Assembly (NCBI GenBank): GCA_947476855.1
Contig: CANJSR010000163.1
Location: 1 to 9,736 of the forward strand
Direction of reading: 5' to 3'
Length of the DNA: 9,736 nucleotides
Origin: Acetobacteraceae bacterium
Lineage (GTDB): Bacteria; Pseudomonadota; Alphaproteobacteria; Acetobacterales; Acetobacteraceae
Of the stretch, positions 194-9,736 are shown one piece after another. The first letter of the stretch is position 1, and each line of letters opens with the position of its first letter. A program made the position numbers and the translations under genes. The notes below the pieces were generated by a model, which was not told where the DNA came from, did not search any database, and saw only the letters and a list, made by a program, of their open reading frames with translations.

Positions 194-896
194 AATCCGC
201 GACCTGGTCGTCAGCTACGGCGCCATCGAGGCCGTGCGCGGCGTCACCATGACCGCCGCCCCCGCCGCCATCACCGCGATCGTCGGCGCCAACGGGGCGG
301 GGAAGTCATCGCTGATGCGGGCGGTGTCCGGCCTCGCACCCGTCCGCGGCGGGCAGATCCTGCTGGACGGCAAGGACATCACCTCCGTCTCCGCCTCCCG
401 CCGCTCCCAGCTTGGCCTCGCACACGCGATGGAGGGACGGCGAATCTTCCGCCAGCTTTCCGTCGAGGAGAACCTCCAGCTCGCCTGGCAGTTCGGCCGC
501 CGCCGCAACACCTGGGCCACCGCGCTGGAACGGGTGTTCAATACCTTTCCCATCCTGATGGAAAAGCGGCGCACGCAGGCTGGACTCATGAGTGGCGGGC
601 AGCAGCAGATGCTGATCGTCTCGGCGGCCACCATCTGCAACCCGGCCTATCTGCTGTTGGATGAGCCGTCCTTGGGACTGGCGCCGATCATCGTGCAGGA
701 AATCTATACGTTCTTCACCGAACGCTGTCGGGAAGACGGCACGACGGTGCTGCTGTCGGAACAGATGGCCGCCCTGGCCCTGAAAGTATCCGTCCACGGC
801 TACGTGCTGCGCCAGGGCAAGGTCGTGCGCGAAGGCCCGTCCCAGGAACTGATTGACAGCGGCCTCGTGGCGGCATTGTCGTCGGCGTACCTGTAG
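186..896 (+). CDS. livF: Branched-chain amino acid ABC transporter ATPase LivF
   Basis: Complete 236-residue ATPase, close to the usual LivF length of about 235. In order: Walker A GANGAGKS (residues 34-41), Q-loop region EGRRIFRQLSVEENL (83-97), signature SGGQQQ (136-141), Walker B YLLLDEP (155-161) and SLGLAP directly after it. As in LivF proteins generally, the switch region reads LLSEQM instead of carrying the H-loop histidine seen in LivG. The ATG at 186 is chosen because GGAGGG (172-177) lies 8 nt upstream. An in-frame ATG at 168 would add six residues but would precede that site. It pairs with LivG to drive a LivHM-type inner-membrane permease. The stop codon lies in the outer edge of a long inverted repeat that separates it from a convergent oxidoreductase gene. 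Confidence 0.93.
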   Translation: MLEIRDLVVSYGAIEAVRGVTMTAAPAAITAIVGANGAGKSSLMRAVSGLAPVRGGQILLDGKDITSVSASRRSQLGLAHAMEGRRIFRQLSVEENLQLAWQFGRRRNTWATALERVFNTFPILMEKRRTQAGLMSGGQQQMLIVSAATICNPAYLLLDEPSLGLAPIIVQEIYTFFTERCREDGTTVLLSEQMAALALKVSVHGYVLRQGKVVREGPSQELIDSGLVAALSSAYL

Positions 897-1130
897 TCGG
901 GGCGCTGCCCCGAACCCCGCCAGGGGCTTTGCCCCTGGACCCCACCAAAGGGCACAGCCCTTTGGAAACCACTCCGTTGGGGGGATTCCGGGAGGGGCTG
1001 AGGCTGTGGTTGATACATCACCTCGGCCCCTCCCGGTATCCCCCCAATCCAATGGTTCCAAGGGCTCCGCCCTTGGTGGGGGTCGAGGGGGCAAAGCCCC
1101 TCGTGGGGTCCGGGGCAAAGCCCCGCTACA
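892..1130. repeat. Giant imperfect inverted repeat between two convergent genes (likely bidirectional terminator)
   Basis: Left arm 892-1003 and right arm 1021-1130 are near-complete reverse complements around a 17-nt loop (1004-1020). The outermost match is TGTAG + T + CGGGGC on the left against TGTAG + CGGGGC on the other strand, so both convergent stop codons (894-896 and 1126-1128) belong to the repeat. The arms differ by scattered substitutions and a few single-base gaps. Each arm contains smaller palindromes such as GGGGCgctGCCCC, AGGGGCtttGCCCCT and AAAGGGcacaGCCCTTT. It has no gene of its own; reading frames that cross it are by-products of its GC content. Repeats of this style are common in spacers of GC-rich Rhodospirillales. 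A role in stopping convergent transcripts is inference. Confidence 0.9.
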
Positions 1131-2862: not shown

Positions 2863-3279
2863 ATGGAATATGTCTGCGACGCCCCCGGCGACCGGACCTG
2901 GTTCCGGCTGTTGCATGAGGGAGAGGCCGCCGCCGAGTCTGAGGCCATGGGCCACGCGGTCGAGAAGCACTATCGCCGCGAATGGGAAAAGGCCGAGGCA
3001 AACTACCAGCCCACGACCTCCGTCTATATCGAGCAGGACATCGGCAAGGCGGCCCATATCCAGCGTGTCATGCCCCGGTTCGTGACCCTGCGCGACCAGG
3101 ATGGGCGGGCGCTGGTGACCGCGATGGTGCCCCCGAAAAGCCAGACGGCCGGCGCCTGCATCGTGGTTGGACCAGGCAACGCCGATCCCTATCAGGACCA
3201 CGCGGATGCGATCGAGGCGCTGGGACGGCACCTGGGCATCAGGCTGGACCGCGCGTCCTGTTACCCTTATCGTCGCTAG
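2863..3279 (+). CDS. Conserved-looking hypothetical protein, 138 aa
   Basis: I do not recognise this family. It is a small soluble protein without signal peptide or membrane segment. Residues 20-48 are rich in charged residues and Ala and look helical (EAAAESEAMGHAVEKHYRRE). A likely beta-rich middle (TSVYIEQDIG, PRFVTLRDQDGRALVTAMV) and a C-terminal helix (HADAIEALGRHLGI) follow. The ATG at 2863 is preferred because GGAG (2853-2856) sits 6 nt upstream; the frame is open further upstream but overlaps the divergent oxidoreductase. It is followed after 19 nt by the cupin gene at 3299, so the two are probably co-transcribed. A role linked to the cupin is guilt by association only. Confidence 0.75.
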   Translation: MEYVCDAPGDRTWFRLLHEGEAAAESEAMGHAVEKHYRREWEKAEANYQPTTSVYIEQDIGKAAHIQRVMPRFVTLRDQDGRALVTAMVPPKSQTAGACIVVGPGNADPYQDHADAIEALGRHLGIRLDRASCYPYRR

Positions 3280-3298
3280 GAGAAGGAGGGCAATGCCA

Positions 3299-3802
3299 AT
3301 GACCGTAAGCCTGGAAAAATTTGCCGCGGACTGCCACGACGCGATCAAGAACAACCCTGGCACCCCGGGGCGTGAGAAGGTGTGCACGCTGCTCAAGCAG
3401 GCGCTCGCCGATCCCGAATTCGTCAAGACCTACATCCCCGAAGGCACGCCGGAGCGGAAGGTCCTGTACGAGGATTCGGAGTTCGGCTTCACCATCCTCG
3501 CCCACGGCTACACCGGTCCCAAGGGCAGCAAGCCGCATGATCATGGCCCGTCCTGGGCGATCTACGGCCAGGCCGCCGGCGAGACGATCATGACCGCCTG
3601 GGACTGCCTCGCCCGCCCGTCCGAGGGCACGCCCGGCAAGGCCAAGTACAACCACGACTACGTGATGCGGCCCGGCGACGCGTATCTGTACGACGTCGGC
3701 GTCCTGCATTCCCCCGAGCGGAAGGCGTCCACCCGCCTGATGCGGATCGAGGGTCTGAACATGGACAAGGTCAAGCGGCTTCCCTACGACGCCGTGAGCT
3801 AA
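3299..3802 (+). CDS. Cysteine dioxygenase-like cupin, predicted metal-dependent enzyme
   Basis: A 167-residue single-domain cupin. The first cupin motif is GSKPHDHGPSWAIYGQAAGET (residues 76-96), giving ligands H80 and H82. The second gives H137 in YDVGVLHSPER. Together they form a three-histidine site as in the cysteine dioxygenase superfamily, where the usual cupin glutamate ligand is lost. It resembles the COG5553-type predicted metal-dependent beta-helix enzymes, which are shorter than classical cysteine dioxygenase (about 200 aa). AGGAGG (3284-3289) lies 9 nt before the ATG at 3299 but only 3 nt before an in-frame ATG at 3293, so 3299 is preferred. It sits downstream of an unrecognised gene and is closed by a strong hairpin. 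A thiol dioxygenase role is possible but not shown; the substrate is unknown. Confidence 0.8.
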   Translation: MTVSLEKFAADCHDAIKNNPGTPGREKVCTLLKQALADPEFVKTYIPEGTPERKVLYEDSEFGFTILAHGYTGPKGSKPHDHGPSWAIYGQAAGETIMTAWDCLARPSEGTPGKAKYNHDYVMRPGDAYLYDVGVLHSPERKASTRLMRIEGLNMDKVKRLPYDAVS

Positions 3803-7732: not shown

Positions 7733-8227
7733 ATGCAGCTTTCCACGCGCGGCCGCTACGCGGTCATGGCCCTGGCCGATCTGGCGTCTCGCCAGACCGC
7801 CGGGTGTGAATGCGGGCCCGTCTGTCTGGCCGAGATCGCGTCCCGCCAGCAGCTCAGCCTGTCCTATCTGGAACAGTTGTTCGGAAAGCTACGCCGAGCG
7901 GGGCTGGTCGCCTCAGCGCGGGGACCGGGTGGAGGGTATCGGCTGGCGCGCGGGGCGGAGCTGATCGCGATCGCCGATATCGTGGCCGCCGTCGATGAAC
8001 CGATCCATGCCACGCGGTGCGAGCCTGGCAGCGGCGGCTGCCTCGCCGGCGCCCATCCTGGCGGGCCTGGAGAGAAATGCCAGACGCATGACCTGTGGTT
8101 CGAACTCGGCCGGCAGATCGAGCTGTTCCTGCGCGGGGTCACCCTGTCGGACGTGATCAACCGCCGGGTGGCCGGGCGGGCGGTTGCGATGCCAGCGGAT
8201 GAGATCAAGCCGCTGGCCGCGGAATAG
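7733..8227 (+). CDS. iscR: Fe-S cluster-sensing Rrf2 family regulator IscR
   Basis: A 164-residue Rrf2 winged-helix regulator that holds a [2Fe-2S] cluster and controls Fe-S assembly genes. MQLSTRGRYAVMALADLA (1-18), LSLSYLEQLFGKLRRAGLV (41-59) and RGPGGGYRLA (63-72) are near-identical to IscR hallmarks. Cluster ligands are C96 (HATRC), C103, C116 and H119 (EKCQTHDLW), matching C92, C98, C104 and H107 of E. coli. The gap between the second and third Cys is 12 residues instead of 5. Three additional cysteines (C25, C27, C31) form CECGPVC between the first helix and the recognition helices, where E. coli IscR has none. The start has no clear ribosome site and lies 2 nt after the cysE stop, so translation is probably coupled. 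A matching operator is at 6851. Confidence 0.93.
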   Translation: MQLSTRGRYAVMALADLASRQTAGCECGPVCLAEIASRQQLSLSYLEQLFGKLRRAGLVASARGPGGGYRLARGAELIAIADIVAAVDEPIHATRCEPGSGGCLAGAHPGGPGEKCQTHDLWFELGRQIELFLRGVTLSDVINRRVAGRAVAMPADEIKPLAAE

Positions 8228-8229
8228 CG

Positions 8230-9582
8230 ATGGTCTACCTGGACGCCAACGCGACCGAGCCGCTCCGCCCCGAGGCGCGGGCGGCCATGCTTGCCGCGAT
8301 GGATGGCGTAGGGAACCCGTCCTCGATCCACCGGTTCGGCCGCTCGGTTCGCCGCACGGTAGAGGACGCGCGGGAAAGCCTCGCCGACCGCTTTGGGGGA
8401 CGGCCGGGGGACCTGGTGTTCGTGTCCGGCGGGACCGAGGCCGATGCGCTGGCGATCCACGCTTTGGGCCGTGATCGTCGGGTGATCATCGGGGCGACCG
8501 AGCATGACGCGGTGCGCTCCGCCGCCCAGAGGGCCGAGGTCCTGCCGGTGGACCGGGATGGGATCGCTGATCTTGACGCGTTGCGGACGATACTGCGGGC
8601 GGACGGGCCAGCGCTGGTCTGCCTGATGCTGGCGAACAATGAGACCGGGACGATCCAGCCGATTCGAGAGGCCGCGATCCTCTGCCGGGAATACGGGGCG
8701 CTGCTGCATGTCGATGCGGTCCAGGCCGCGGGGCGGTTGGTCGGTGCGCTGCCCGCTGTTGGTCCCGGGGGGACCATGGCCCCAACCACCACGCCCCCCC
8801 TCCCCTTGAGGGCTTGGGCCGCAGAGCGGACCGAGGCCGGGGGGAGGGGTAGCCACCCCACGGACCGTGCCGCGATCACCCCTCCCCCGGCCCCTCCCTC
8901 AAGGGGAGGGGAGACTATGTGGCAAACCGCCCCTCTCCCATTCCACACCGCGAACCCTGGGATGGCCGCCGCTCCCCCAATGGACACGCCCTCCACCGTC
9001 TCCCTCACCGCCCTCCTCTGCCACTCCCTCGCCCTCTCCTCCCACAAGATCGGAGGCCCCCCGGGCGTGGGCGCCCTCCTCCTCGCCCCTGAACTCAGCG
9101 CGATCCGCCCCCTGATCACCGGCGGGGGCCAGGAACGAGGCCGCCGAGGTGGCACCCTCGCCGCCCCCCTGATCGCCGGATTCGCCGCCGCAGCCGAGGC
9201 CTGCGGTGATGCAGCGACTCTCTCCCCCCTGCGTGACGCCGCCGAACAGGCCGCCATTGCCGCCGGGGCCATCGTCTGTGGCGGGGGTGCCCCTCGCCTG
9301 CCCAACACCACCTGCCTCGCGCTGCCCGGCGTCCGGGCCGACGCGCAGGTCATCGCGCTCGACCTGGAGGGCATCGCCGTCAGTGCCGGCGCCGCGTGTA
9401 GTTCCGGCAAGGTCGCCGCCAGCCATGTCCTGACCGCTATGGGCCTCGGCGACCTCGCCGCCCAGGCCATCCGCGTCTCCCTGCCCTGGAACGCCACCGC
9501 CGCCGATATCGAGGCCTTCATCGCCGCCTACCAACGCATGGCCGACCGGCTGCGCCCAACCATGGCGCCCAGGGCAGCCTAG
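8230..9582 (+). CDS. Cysteine desulfurase (NifS/IscS family) with a large in-frame insertion
   Basis: A 450-residue PLP enzyme expected to turn cysteine into alanine plus enzyme-bound persulfide for Fe-S assembly. Family landmarks: YLDANAT (3-9), GNPSSIHRFGR (28-38), SGGTEADALAI (66-76), ATEHDAV (89-95), NNETGTIQP (136-144), LHVDAVQAAGR (159-169; D162 and Q165 contact PLP), SSHKIGGPPGVGAL (270-283; K273 forms the PLP Schiff base) and SAGAACSSG (385-393; C390 carries persulfide). All key residues are intact. R169 and S270 are 100 residues apart, where IscS proteins have about 15; the extra roughly 85 residues are Pro/Ala/Gly-rich and come from a palindromic repeat. Leucine codons shift from mostly CTG before it to mostly CTC after it. 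The start is 2 nt after the iscR stop. A second desulfurase follows, so this copy may be under relaxed constraint. Confidence 0.9.
   Translation: MVYLDANATEPLRPEARAAMLAAMDGVGNPSSIHRFGRSVRRTVEDARESLADRFGGRPGDLVFVSGGTEADALAIHALGRDRRVIIGATEHDAVRSAAQRAEVLPVDRDGIADLDALRTILRADGPALVCLMLANNETGTIQPIREAAILCREYGALLHVDAVQAAGRLVGALPAVGPGGTMAPTTTPPLPLRAWAAERTEAGGRGSHPTDRAAITPPPAPPSRGGETMWQTAPLPFHTANPGMAAAPPMDTPSTVSLTALLCHSLALSSHKIGGPPGVGALLLAPELSAIRPLITGGGQERGRRGGTLAAPLIAGFAAAAEACGDAATLSPLRDAAEQAAIAAGAIVCGGGAPRLPNTTCLALPGVRADAQVIALDLEGIAVSAGAACSSGKVAASHVLTAMGLGDLAAQAIRVSLPWNATAADIEAFIAAYQRMADRLRPTMAPRAA
8761..8911. repeat. Palindromic repeat element inserted in-frame inside the desulfurase gene
   Basis: CCCCTCCCCTTGAGGG (8797-8812) is the perfect reverse complement of 8896-8911. 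Inside these arms, GGCCGGGGGGAGGGGT (8835-8850) pairs with ACCCCTCCCCCGGCC (8878-8892) with one extra G. Minor palindromes CCGC-AGA-GCGG (8819-8829) and CACGG-A-CCGTG (8859-8869) lie inside, and GGTCCC-GGG-GGGACC (8761-8775) lies just outside. The element is translated as part of the desulfurase (residues 178-228, Pro-rich). The full extra segment runs from about 8740 to 9000 and keeps the frame. It looks like an intergenic GC-rich repeat that has landed in a gene, comparable to Rickettsia palindromic elements in concept, but not related by anything I can show. Confidence 0.85.
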
Positions 9583-9588
9583 CCCCAA

Positions 9589-9736
9589 ATGGAACCCATG
9601 ACCGACCTGCCGCCCCGCCCGAACCGCCCCGTCTATCTGGACAACCAGGCGACCACGCGCTGCGATCCGCGCGTCCTGGCGAAGATGCTGCCGTATTTCA
9701 CCGAGGAATACGGCAACCCCCACAGCGCCGAACACG
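9589..9736 (+). CDS. iscS: Second cysteine desulfurase IscS, N-terminal part (partial)
   Basis: The first 49 residues of a second NifS/IscS enzyme; the gene runs past the window end. [33 protein letters not shown] is the usual opening of alphaproteobacterial IscS, with Arg where Pro usually follows ATT. There are two in-frame ATGs, 9589 and 9598. Neither has a strong ribosome site (GGA at 9591-9593 is 4 nt before the second), so the start is uncertain. It begins 6 nt after the preceding desulfurase stop and is surely in the same operon. suf/isc assembly genes are expected downstream by analogy with related genomes, but are not visible. Confidence 0.88.

What the first reader, a model, noticed from the sequence alone, without database searches (positions are those of the whole stretch)
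8737..9036. In-frame palindromic repeat inside a cysteine desulfurase, next to the PLP-lysine motif
The segment between the PLP-contact motif HVDAVQAAGR and SSHKIGG is 100 residues instead of about 15. The extra DNA holds a 115-bp inverted repeat (8797-8911) typical of spacer elements, yet the frame is open and catalytic D162, Q165, K273 and C390 remain. Either the enzyme tolerates an extra Pro-rich loop, or the gene is being relieved by the second iscS directly downstream. In-frame palindromes in core enzymes are known in Rickettsia; a case in a sulfur-transfer enzyme of a free-living-looking alphaproteobacterium would be notable.
Basis: partly seen in the sequence, partly recalled or inferred. 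Interest (0 to 1): 0.72.

Follow-up and report, generated by a model that had tools for sequence, protein, structure and literature searches.

The report
In-frame palindromic repeats in bacterial enzymes
A scattered palindromic DNA repeat sits, in reading frame, inside a sulfur-transfer enzyme and several other core genes of uncultured relatives of acetic acid bacteria, adding what looks like a floppy loop that the proteins tolerate; the kind of thing is known from Rickettsia, but the repeat and the lineage are new to it.

Summary
The NifS-like desulfurase (8230-9582) has 99 residues between HVDAVQAAGR and LSSHKIGG; 70 of 73 readable relatives have 14. The extra DNA is a copy of a dispersed palindrome: 130 and 242 half-site matches in two congeners, 0 for the backwards control. 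Two related species share the insert and keep the catalytic residues. Outside it dN/dS is 0.08-0.15, inside 0.93-1.97; AlphaFold gives a confident core and a disordered stretch at 184-254. A tolerated loop fits better than a decaying gene, although one further relative (P0001) is frameshifted. It is not isolated: 14 of 168 surveyed element sites in four genomes were called in frame inside genes of 13 families, among them AddA, AddB, an impB/mucB-type polymerase and a GltX-type protein. CopA (insert 0.98) repeats the dN/dS pattern, AddA (0.50) more weakly. Protein-coding palindromes are known from Rickettsia, and intragenic REPs from free-living bacteria (PMC3733652). This repeat shows no GTAG/CGTC tag, and no RAYT transposase was detected in the four genomes. 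New member of a known kind.

The parts
8230..9582 (+). NifS/IscS-type cysteine desulfurase gene carrying the insert, 450 aa
   Evidence: PF00266 in two stretches, best NCBIfam TIGR03402 at 264 bits (below its 531 cut-off)
8737..9033 (+). 99-codon linker between HVDAVQAAGR and LSSHKIGG (14 codons in 70 of 73 readable relatives)
8740..8994 (+). parsimonious extent of the in-frame insertion, 255 bp, 85 codons
   Evidence: inference from the residual 14-residue linker
8786..8922 (.). palindromic core of the dispersed repeat (nested hairpins)
8813..8830 (+). 18 nt present in the window's copy and absent from the two orthologous copies
   Evidence: alignment
8923..8994 (+). Pro-rich tail, outside the stretch matched by most other copies; in L062 the same place holds 3.1 copies of a 39-bp (13-codon) tandem repeat
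8713..8724 (+). D162 to Q165 (PLP-contacting residues, roles recalled)
   Evidence: D162 and Q165 invariant in 45 sequences
9046..9048 (+). K273, PLP lysine (role recalled)
   Evidence: invariant
9397..9399 (+). C390, persulfide cysteine (role recalled)
   Evidence: invariant
7733..8227 (+). IscR-like Rrf2 regulator upstream
9589..9736 (+). start of a second desulfurase gene, cut by the window end (read by eye, YLDNQATT; not run through a family search)
   Evidence: sequence; in G001 and G032 a second desulfurase lies right behind the first

Best explanation
A dispersed, MITE-like palindromic repeat inserted once, in frame, into the nifS-like gene of an ancestor of this Acetobacteraceae clade, in the linker between the stretch that holds D162/Q165 and the one that holds the PLP lysine. 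It is translated (inferred) as a Pro/Gly/Arg-rich disordered loop that leaves the fold intact. The gene stayed under purifying selection while the insert drifted nearly freely at the protein level, kept in frame. The same repeat has done this in at least 12 other gene families of related genomes; most sampled copies lie outside genes or were not called in frame, probably because most intragenic insertions are lost. Shown: the insert, its repeat family, its presence in two further species, dN/dS, the in-frame copies elsewhere, the predicted disorder. Inferred: one ancestral insertion, translation, enzyme activity, a transposition-like origin, loss of harmful insertions.
For: Dispersed family: (backwards control 0). 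Insert shared with L061/G001 and L062/G032, absent in 71 of 73 readable relatives. dN/dS: nifS 5' part 0.146, 0.123, 0.083; 3' part 0.148, 0.101, 0.148; linker 1.97, 0.96, 0.93; three uninserted pairs 0.19, 0.04, 0.11. CopA flanks 0.07 and 0.05, insert 0.98; AddA flanks 0.18 and 0.11, insert 0.50. AlphaFold: 296 residues at pLDDT 90 or more, below 50 at 184-254; the model matches IscS/NifS structures. 14 of 168 element sites in frame inside genes (union, checked), families named. Congeners in which both parts of the GltX-type protein or of AddA show up lack the extra stretch, except AddA of G001, which shares it. Element copies are stop-free in 426 of 672 frames (112 copies x 6), so some chance in-frame insertions are expected.
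Against: No transcript or protein data. A relative, P0001 (one contig), carries the insert and is out of frame behind it, so the gene can be lost or that contig has an error in a C-run. Between window and L061 the linker has pS 0.06 against 0.22-0.25 in the flanks, so the insert is not simply neutral at the DNA level; conversion from other copies or constraint on the palindrome is possible. The AddA insert has dN/dS 0.50, not 1. Only four insert-bearing nifS sequences were seen (window, L061, L062, P0001). No RAYT transposase and no evident target duplication were found. Seven of 168 sites were same-frame with a stop and 32 had same-strand coding flanks in different frames; some may be broken genes, which I did not check.
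Confidence: 0.85

Rival explanations
1. The gene is on its way to being a pseudogene, relieved by the iscS copy next door.
For: A second desulfurase lies directly downstream; P0001 has the insert and a frameshift.
Against: Three species keep the frame, with dN/dS 0.08-0.15 over about 169 + 182 flanking codons, within the range 0.04-0.19 of three uninserted pairs; D162, Q165, K273, C390 invariant.
Confidence: 0.08
2. The insert has been co-opted: the loop, or the hairpin in the mRNA or DNA, has a function such as binding a sulfur acceptor, slowing translation before the C-terminal half folds, or setting expression.
For: Inserts are shared between orthologues at three loci: nifS, addA and copA; the core differs by 7% between window and L061 while synonymous flank sites differ by 22-25%; strong predicted hairpin.
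Against: dN/dS near 1 in nifS and copA inserts, indels between species, predicted disorder; unrelated host proteins; 154 of 168 sampled sites were not called in frame within genes.
Confidence: 0.12
3. Assembly artefact: repeats misjoined into genes in draft assemblies.
For: The two named insert-bearing records, L061 and L062, are metagenome-assembled genomes; the sources of the window and of P0001 are not known to me.
Against: The same insert at the same place, 7-13% diverged in the core, in window, L061 and L062, in frame; likewise addA and copA in two genomes.
Confidence: 0.02

Closest known systems
Rickettsia palindromic elements (RPE) and Wolbachia palindromic elements
   Same: 100-150 bp palindromic repeats found in frame inside unrelated conserved proteins, in exposed places, kept in orthologues (passages of PMC10969869, PMC3767692 and PMC2229807)
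   Different: Acetobacteraceae, congeners of 4.1-8.4 Mb, loci of G+C 0.63-0.72; sequence relation to RPE families not tested; 14 of 168 sampled sites in frame in genes, against nearly half in R. conorii as cited in PMC10969869
Intragenic GTAG/CGTC REPs of free-living bacteria (PMC3733652)
   Same: Palindromes inside genes of free-living bacteria, with DNA repair and tRNA synthetase genes among the hosts (section 15); here AddA, AddB, impB/mucB-type and GltX-type
   Different: No GTAG/CGTC tag enrichment, about 100-180 bp instead of 20-40 bp, no RAYT found; that paper names Acetobacteraceae among families without CGTC repeats (section 17 part 1)
MITEs with ORFs (ERIC, Correia, QMITE)
   Same: In G033, 15 copies of 156-181 bp are bounded by TTCACACATCNCGG-like inverted repeats; intragenic in-frame fusions are known for MITEs (passages)
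   Different: No cognate transposase or evident target duplication found; the window's copy lacks these ends

Membership tests
RPE-type protein-coding palindromes | dispersed palindromic repeat of about 100-150 bp | tested here: met
RPE-type protein-coding palindromes | in-frame copies inside unrelated conserved proteins | tested here: met
   14 of 168 sites, 13 families
RPE-type protein-coding palindromes | host is a Rickettsiales genome | tested here: not met
   the nearest named records are Acetobacteraceae metagenome-assembled genomes
RPE-type protein-coding palindromes | sequence homology to a named RPE family | not tested
   no RPE set was on hand; an Rfam scan of the window gave 0 matches
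RPE-type protein-coding palindromes | decorated protein expressed and active | not testable with these tools
   no expression data
GTAG/CGTC REP superfamilies | GTAG or CGTC tag at one end | tested here: not met
   near the ends GTAG in 16 and CGTC in 32 of 112 copies; six control tetramers 16-36
GTAG/CGTC REP superfamilies | RAYT (Y1_Tnp) transposase in the genome (for GTAG REPs) | tested here: not met
   PF01797: 0 matches in G001, G024, G032, G033; 12 of 59 relatives match; G001 and G024 are only 64% and 68% complete
MITE | terminal inverted repeats, in congener G033 | tested here: met
   47 + 41 end matches at up to 1 mismatch, backwards control 0; 15 pairs 156-181 bp apart at up to 3 mismatches, a cut at which chance matches are common (52 in 262 kb of G032 loci)
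MITE | terminal inverted repeats, at the window's copy | tested here: not met
   no match to these ends near 8786-8922 at up to 3 mismatches
MITE | target-site duplication and a related autonomous element | tested here: inconclusive
   none evident by eye in 15 copies; 13 end pairs 0.6-3 kb apart at 3 mismatches were not examined further
NifS/IscS cysteine desulfurase | class V aminotransferase domain with PLP lysine and persulfide cysteine | tested here: met
   PF00266, invariant K273 and C390, Foldseek to IscS/NifS
NifS/IscS cysteine desulfurase | NCBIfam equivalog cut-off | tested here: not met
   TIGR03402 264.4 bits, cut-off 530.75; the match is split into two stretches at the insert, so this says little

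The most novel reading that the evidence does not exclude
Unrelated palindromic repeats end up again and again in the same kinds of genes: recombination and mutagenic repair (here AddA, AddB and an impB/mucB-type polymerase, 3 of 13 host families) and tRNA synthetases, as a 2013 survey saw with different repeats. If real, either these proteins share surface sites that accept loops, or repair genes are preferred hosts because repeat-carrying alleles change recombination and so favour repeat spread.
Probability: 0.15. Interest if true: 0.78.

Novelty: new member of a known kind. Interest (0 to 1): 0.5.

Why it matters
It puts in-frame, protein-coding palindromes into an uncultured Acetobacteraceae lineage with full-size genomes, with three loci (nifS, addA, copA) where inheritance and selection can be measured. 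It gives a set of natural loop insertions in core enzymes for testing how repeats create new protein segments, and an independent repeat family with which to test whether repair genes are preferred hosts. It also shows how such a gene can fall below a curated family cut-off.

Tried and rejected
Own-genome copy count: not possible, the window's assembly is not held; relatives were used instead. REP/RAYT origin: no Y1_Tnp match in the four element-rich genomes surveyed, no tag enrichment. Known RNA family: 0 Rfam matches in the window. Other proteins carrying the same peptide: a 92-residue region search found 1 protein, P0001, among 756 candidates; length and word limits make this weak. A cognate insertion sequence for the G033 ends: not found, not exhaustive. 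GC-skew step: the 3' part of nifS has third-position skew -0.52, -0.51 and -0.48 in window, L061 and L062; in a list of 66 relatives that includes L061 and L062 these two are the lowest, the next being -0.40; but 150-nt stretches of cysE in the window reach -0.63 without any insert, so I did not build on it. Decay of the gene: judged unlikely from dN/dS. The in-frame calls are heuristic: one search gave 9 of 93 sites by G+C phase, one search gave 11 of 168 by codon usage; three sites (L011, L140, L149) were labelled otherwise, and I kept them because family matches or orthologue alignments span them. The rest: 57 one side coding, 36 neither, 32 both coding on one strand in different frames, 25 opposite strands, 7 same frame with a stop. 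L298 shows only nine element residues and L289 has family support mainly on one side; these two are the weakest. RecO in G001 (L006) has an element near its 3' end and was not counted. Two of five uninserted control pairs failed to parse and were dropped. A plasmid search with the AddA protein added nothing.

Papers: PMC3733652, passages plus section 15 and part 1 of 2 of section 17; PMC10969869, PMC3767692, PMC5896051 and PMC2229807, passages only; the Ogata papers were seen only as cited, PMC186582 is not held. That I found no report of palindromes inside Acetobacteraceae genes rests on searches and 69 of open-licence papers, of which only named the family, and on listings, not on reading all hits.

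Full report
What is there. The window holds cysE, iscR, a NifS-like desulfurase and the start of a second desulfurase gene. The first desulfurase is 450 aa. Between HVDAVQAAGR and LSSHKIGG it has 99 residues. Of 79 relatives fetched from genome contigs, 73 had both motifs readable: 70 have 14 residues there, one 12, and two have 97 and 114. In all three the linker still ends in a 13-residue stretch such as TVSLTALLCHSLA that, with one leading residue, makes up the usual 14, so the insertion looks clean: 255, 249 and 300 bp by difference (inference).

The insert is a repeat. A 300-nt query of the segment gives 69 match pieces in the nearest held genome G001 (both strands of a palindrome count, and 40 of 133 candidates were scored). 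A 141-nt query from L062 gives 88 pieces in G032, 82 in G033 and 83 in G024, again with 40 candidates scored each. A half-site pattern counted over whole genomes gives 68+62 in G032 and 128+114 in G033; the same pattern read backwards gives 0. With 14 candidates scored per genome, 18 of 59 relatives show a match to the core, in 4 of 27 genera. The core is a nested palindrome whose predicted fold beats all 200 shuffles. In G033 longer copies are bounded by TTCACACATCNCGG inverted repeats (47+41 ends at up to one mismatch, control 0; 15 pairs 156-181 bp apart at up to three mismatches).

The gene looks alive. D162, Q165, K273 and C390 are invariant in 45 aligned sequences. Between window, L061 and L062, dN/dS is 0.083-0.146 before the insert and 0.101-0.148 behind it, against 0.04, 0.11 and 0.19 for three uninserted pairs; two further control pairs failed to parse and were dropped. 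In the linker it is 1.97, 0.96 and 0.93. Nucleotide identity of the core is 0.93, 0.87 and 0.88, of the Pro-rich tail 0.88, 0.62 and 0.60. In L062 the tail holds a 39-bp tandem repeat, 13 codons per unit, 3.1 copies. AlphaFold2 on a 45-sequence alignment gives mean pLDDT 82, a confident core and residues 184-254 below 50; Foldseek returns IscS and NifS structures. That the loop is exposed is inferred from this; I could not measure distances in the model.

Against this reading: P0001, a 276-aa protein from one contig, carries the 5' part and the element but follows another frame behind it. It may be a real loss or a base error in a C-run. Between window and L061 the linker has fewer synonymous differences than the flanks (pS 0.06 against 0.22-0.25), which a purely neutral stretch should not show; conversion among copies or constraint on the hairpin could explain it.

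Not alone. I collected 168 unique element sites with flanks on both sides from four genomes (G032 77, G033 49, G001 24, G024 18; 217 before removing duplicates and sites near locus ends). These are the best-scoring or first-listed sites, not all sites. Two heuristics, G+C phase (9 of 93) and codon usage (11 of 168), together sites in frame inside genes; all 14 are among the 168. The other labels were 57 one side coding, 36 neither, 32 same strand in different frames, 25 opposite strands and 7 same frame with a stop; some of these may be broken genes. Families of the 14: copper-type P-ATPase in G001 and G032, AmgK-like in G001; NifS-like, AddA, GltX-type, PMT_2 glycosyltransferase, CbiX, hydantoinase, MBOAT and a PRK06567-like protein in G032; AddB and an impB/mucB-type polymerase (ImuB is my recalled name) in G033; HpnG in G024. 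The GltX-type match is below its curated cut-off, as are several others. For the GltX-type protein and AddA, the congeners whose two parts both appear lack the extra stretch: the parts abut or overlap in the DNA while about 50-70 query residues between them stay unmatched. AddA of G001 holds the same insert at the same place as G032. dN/dS: CopA flanks 0.07 and 0.05, insert 0.98; AddA flanks 0.18 and 0.11, insert 0.50. At least three readings of the element occur in these proteins: LPLPLREG..GGRG, PPPLEGG..RGEG and PPPPLRGRAGVGG.

Why in frame. Of 112 full copies, 426 of 672 frames are free of stops, and 35 of 112 core lengths divide by three. Roughly a fifth of chance insertions into genes would then stay open; the rest would usually break the gene and be lost. 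That, with most sampled sites not in frame in genes, fits a repeat that spreads broadly and is filtered by selection. This is inference. What moves it is unknown: no Y1_Tnp match in the four genomes, no tag enrichment, no target duplication evident by eye in 15 copies.

Against the literature. RPEs insert in frame into conserved proteins and are kept in orthologues (passages). PMC3733652 reports REPs within genes of free-living bacteria, many in DNA repair, and in tRNA synthetases (section 15), and says CGTC repeats are missing in Acetobacteraceae (section 17). So the phenomenon is known; the repeat family, the lineage and the hosts here are what is added. The overlap in host categories with that survey (AddA, AddB, impB/mucB-type, GltX-type) is striking but rests on 13 families and was not tested against a background.

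Verdict. Observation confirmed, interpretation supported, novelty moderate: a repeat family behaving like RPEs in an uncultured Acetobacteraceae clade. Confidence 0.85 that it is a tolerated in-frame palindromic insertion in a gene under selection.

Noticed in passing
window 895-1128: A second, different palindromic repeat of about 234 bp between the ABC transporter ATPase gene and the GMC oxidoreductase gene; 81, 83 and 84 match pieces in G001, G032 and G033 (40 candidates scored each).
   Followed up: partly
window 9034-9579 and the same part of L061, L062: Third-position GC skew drops to about -0.5 behind the insert in all three insert-bearing genes; L061 and L062 are the lowest of 66 relatives measured. 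Short stretches of cysE in the window reach -0.63 without an insert.
   Followed up: partly
L062:3639-3759: 39-bp tandem repeat, 3.1 copies, in frame inside the linker, so the insert can grow by 13-codon units.
   Followed up: partly
L334 (G001:C156:28500-32000): A second element copy lies just upstream of the conserved start of addA in G001, and a related one in G032.
   Followed up: no
L006:1501-1620: Element copy near the 3' end of recO in G001, possibly changing its C-terminus.
   Followed up: no
window 3167-3802: A 211-aa ORF before the HpaB-type hydroxylase gene has no Pfam match.
   Followed up: no
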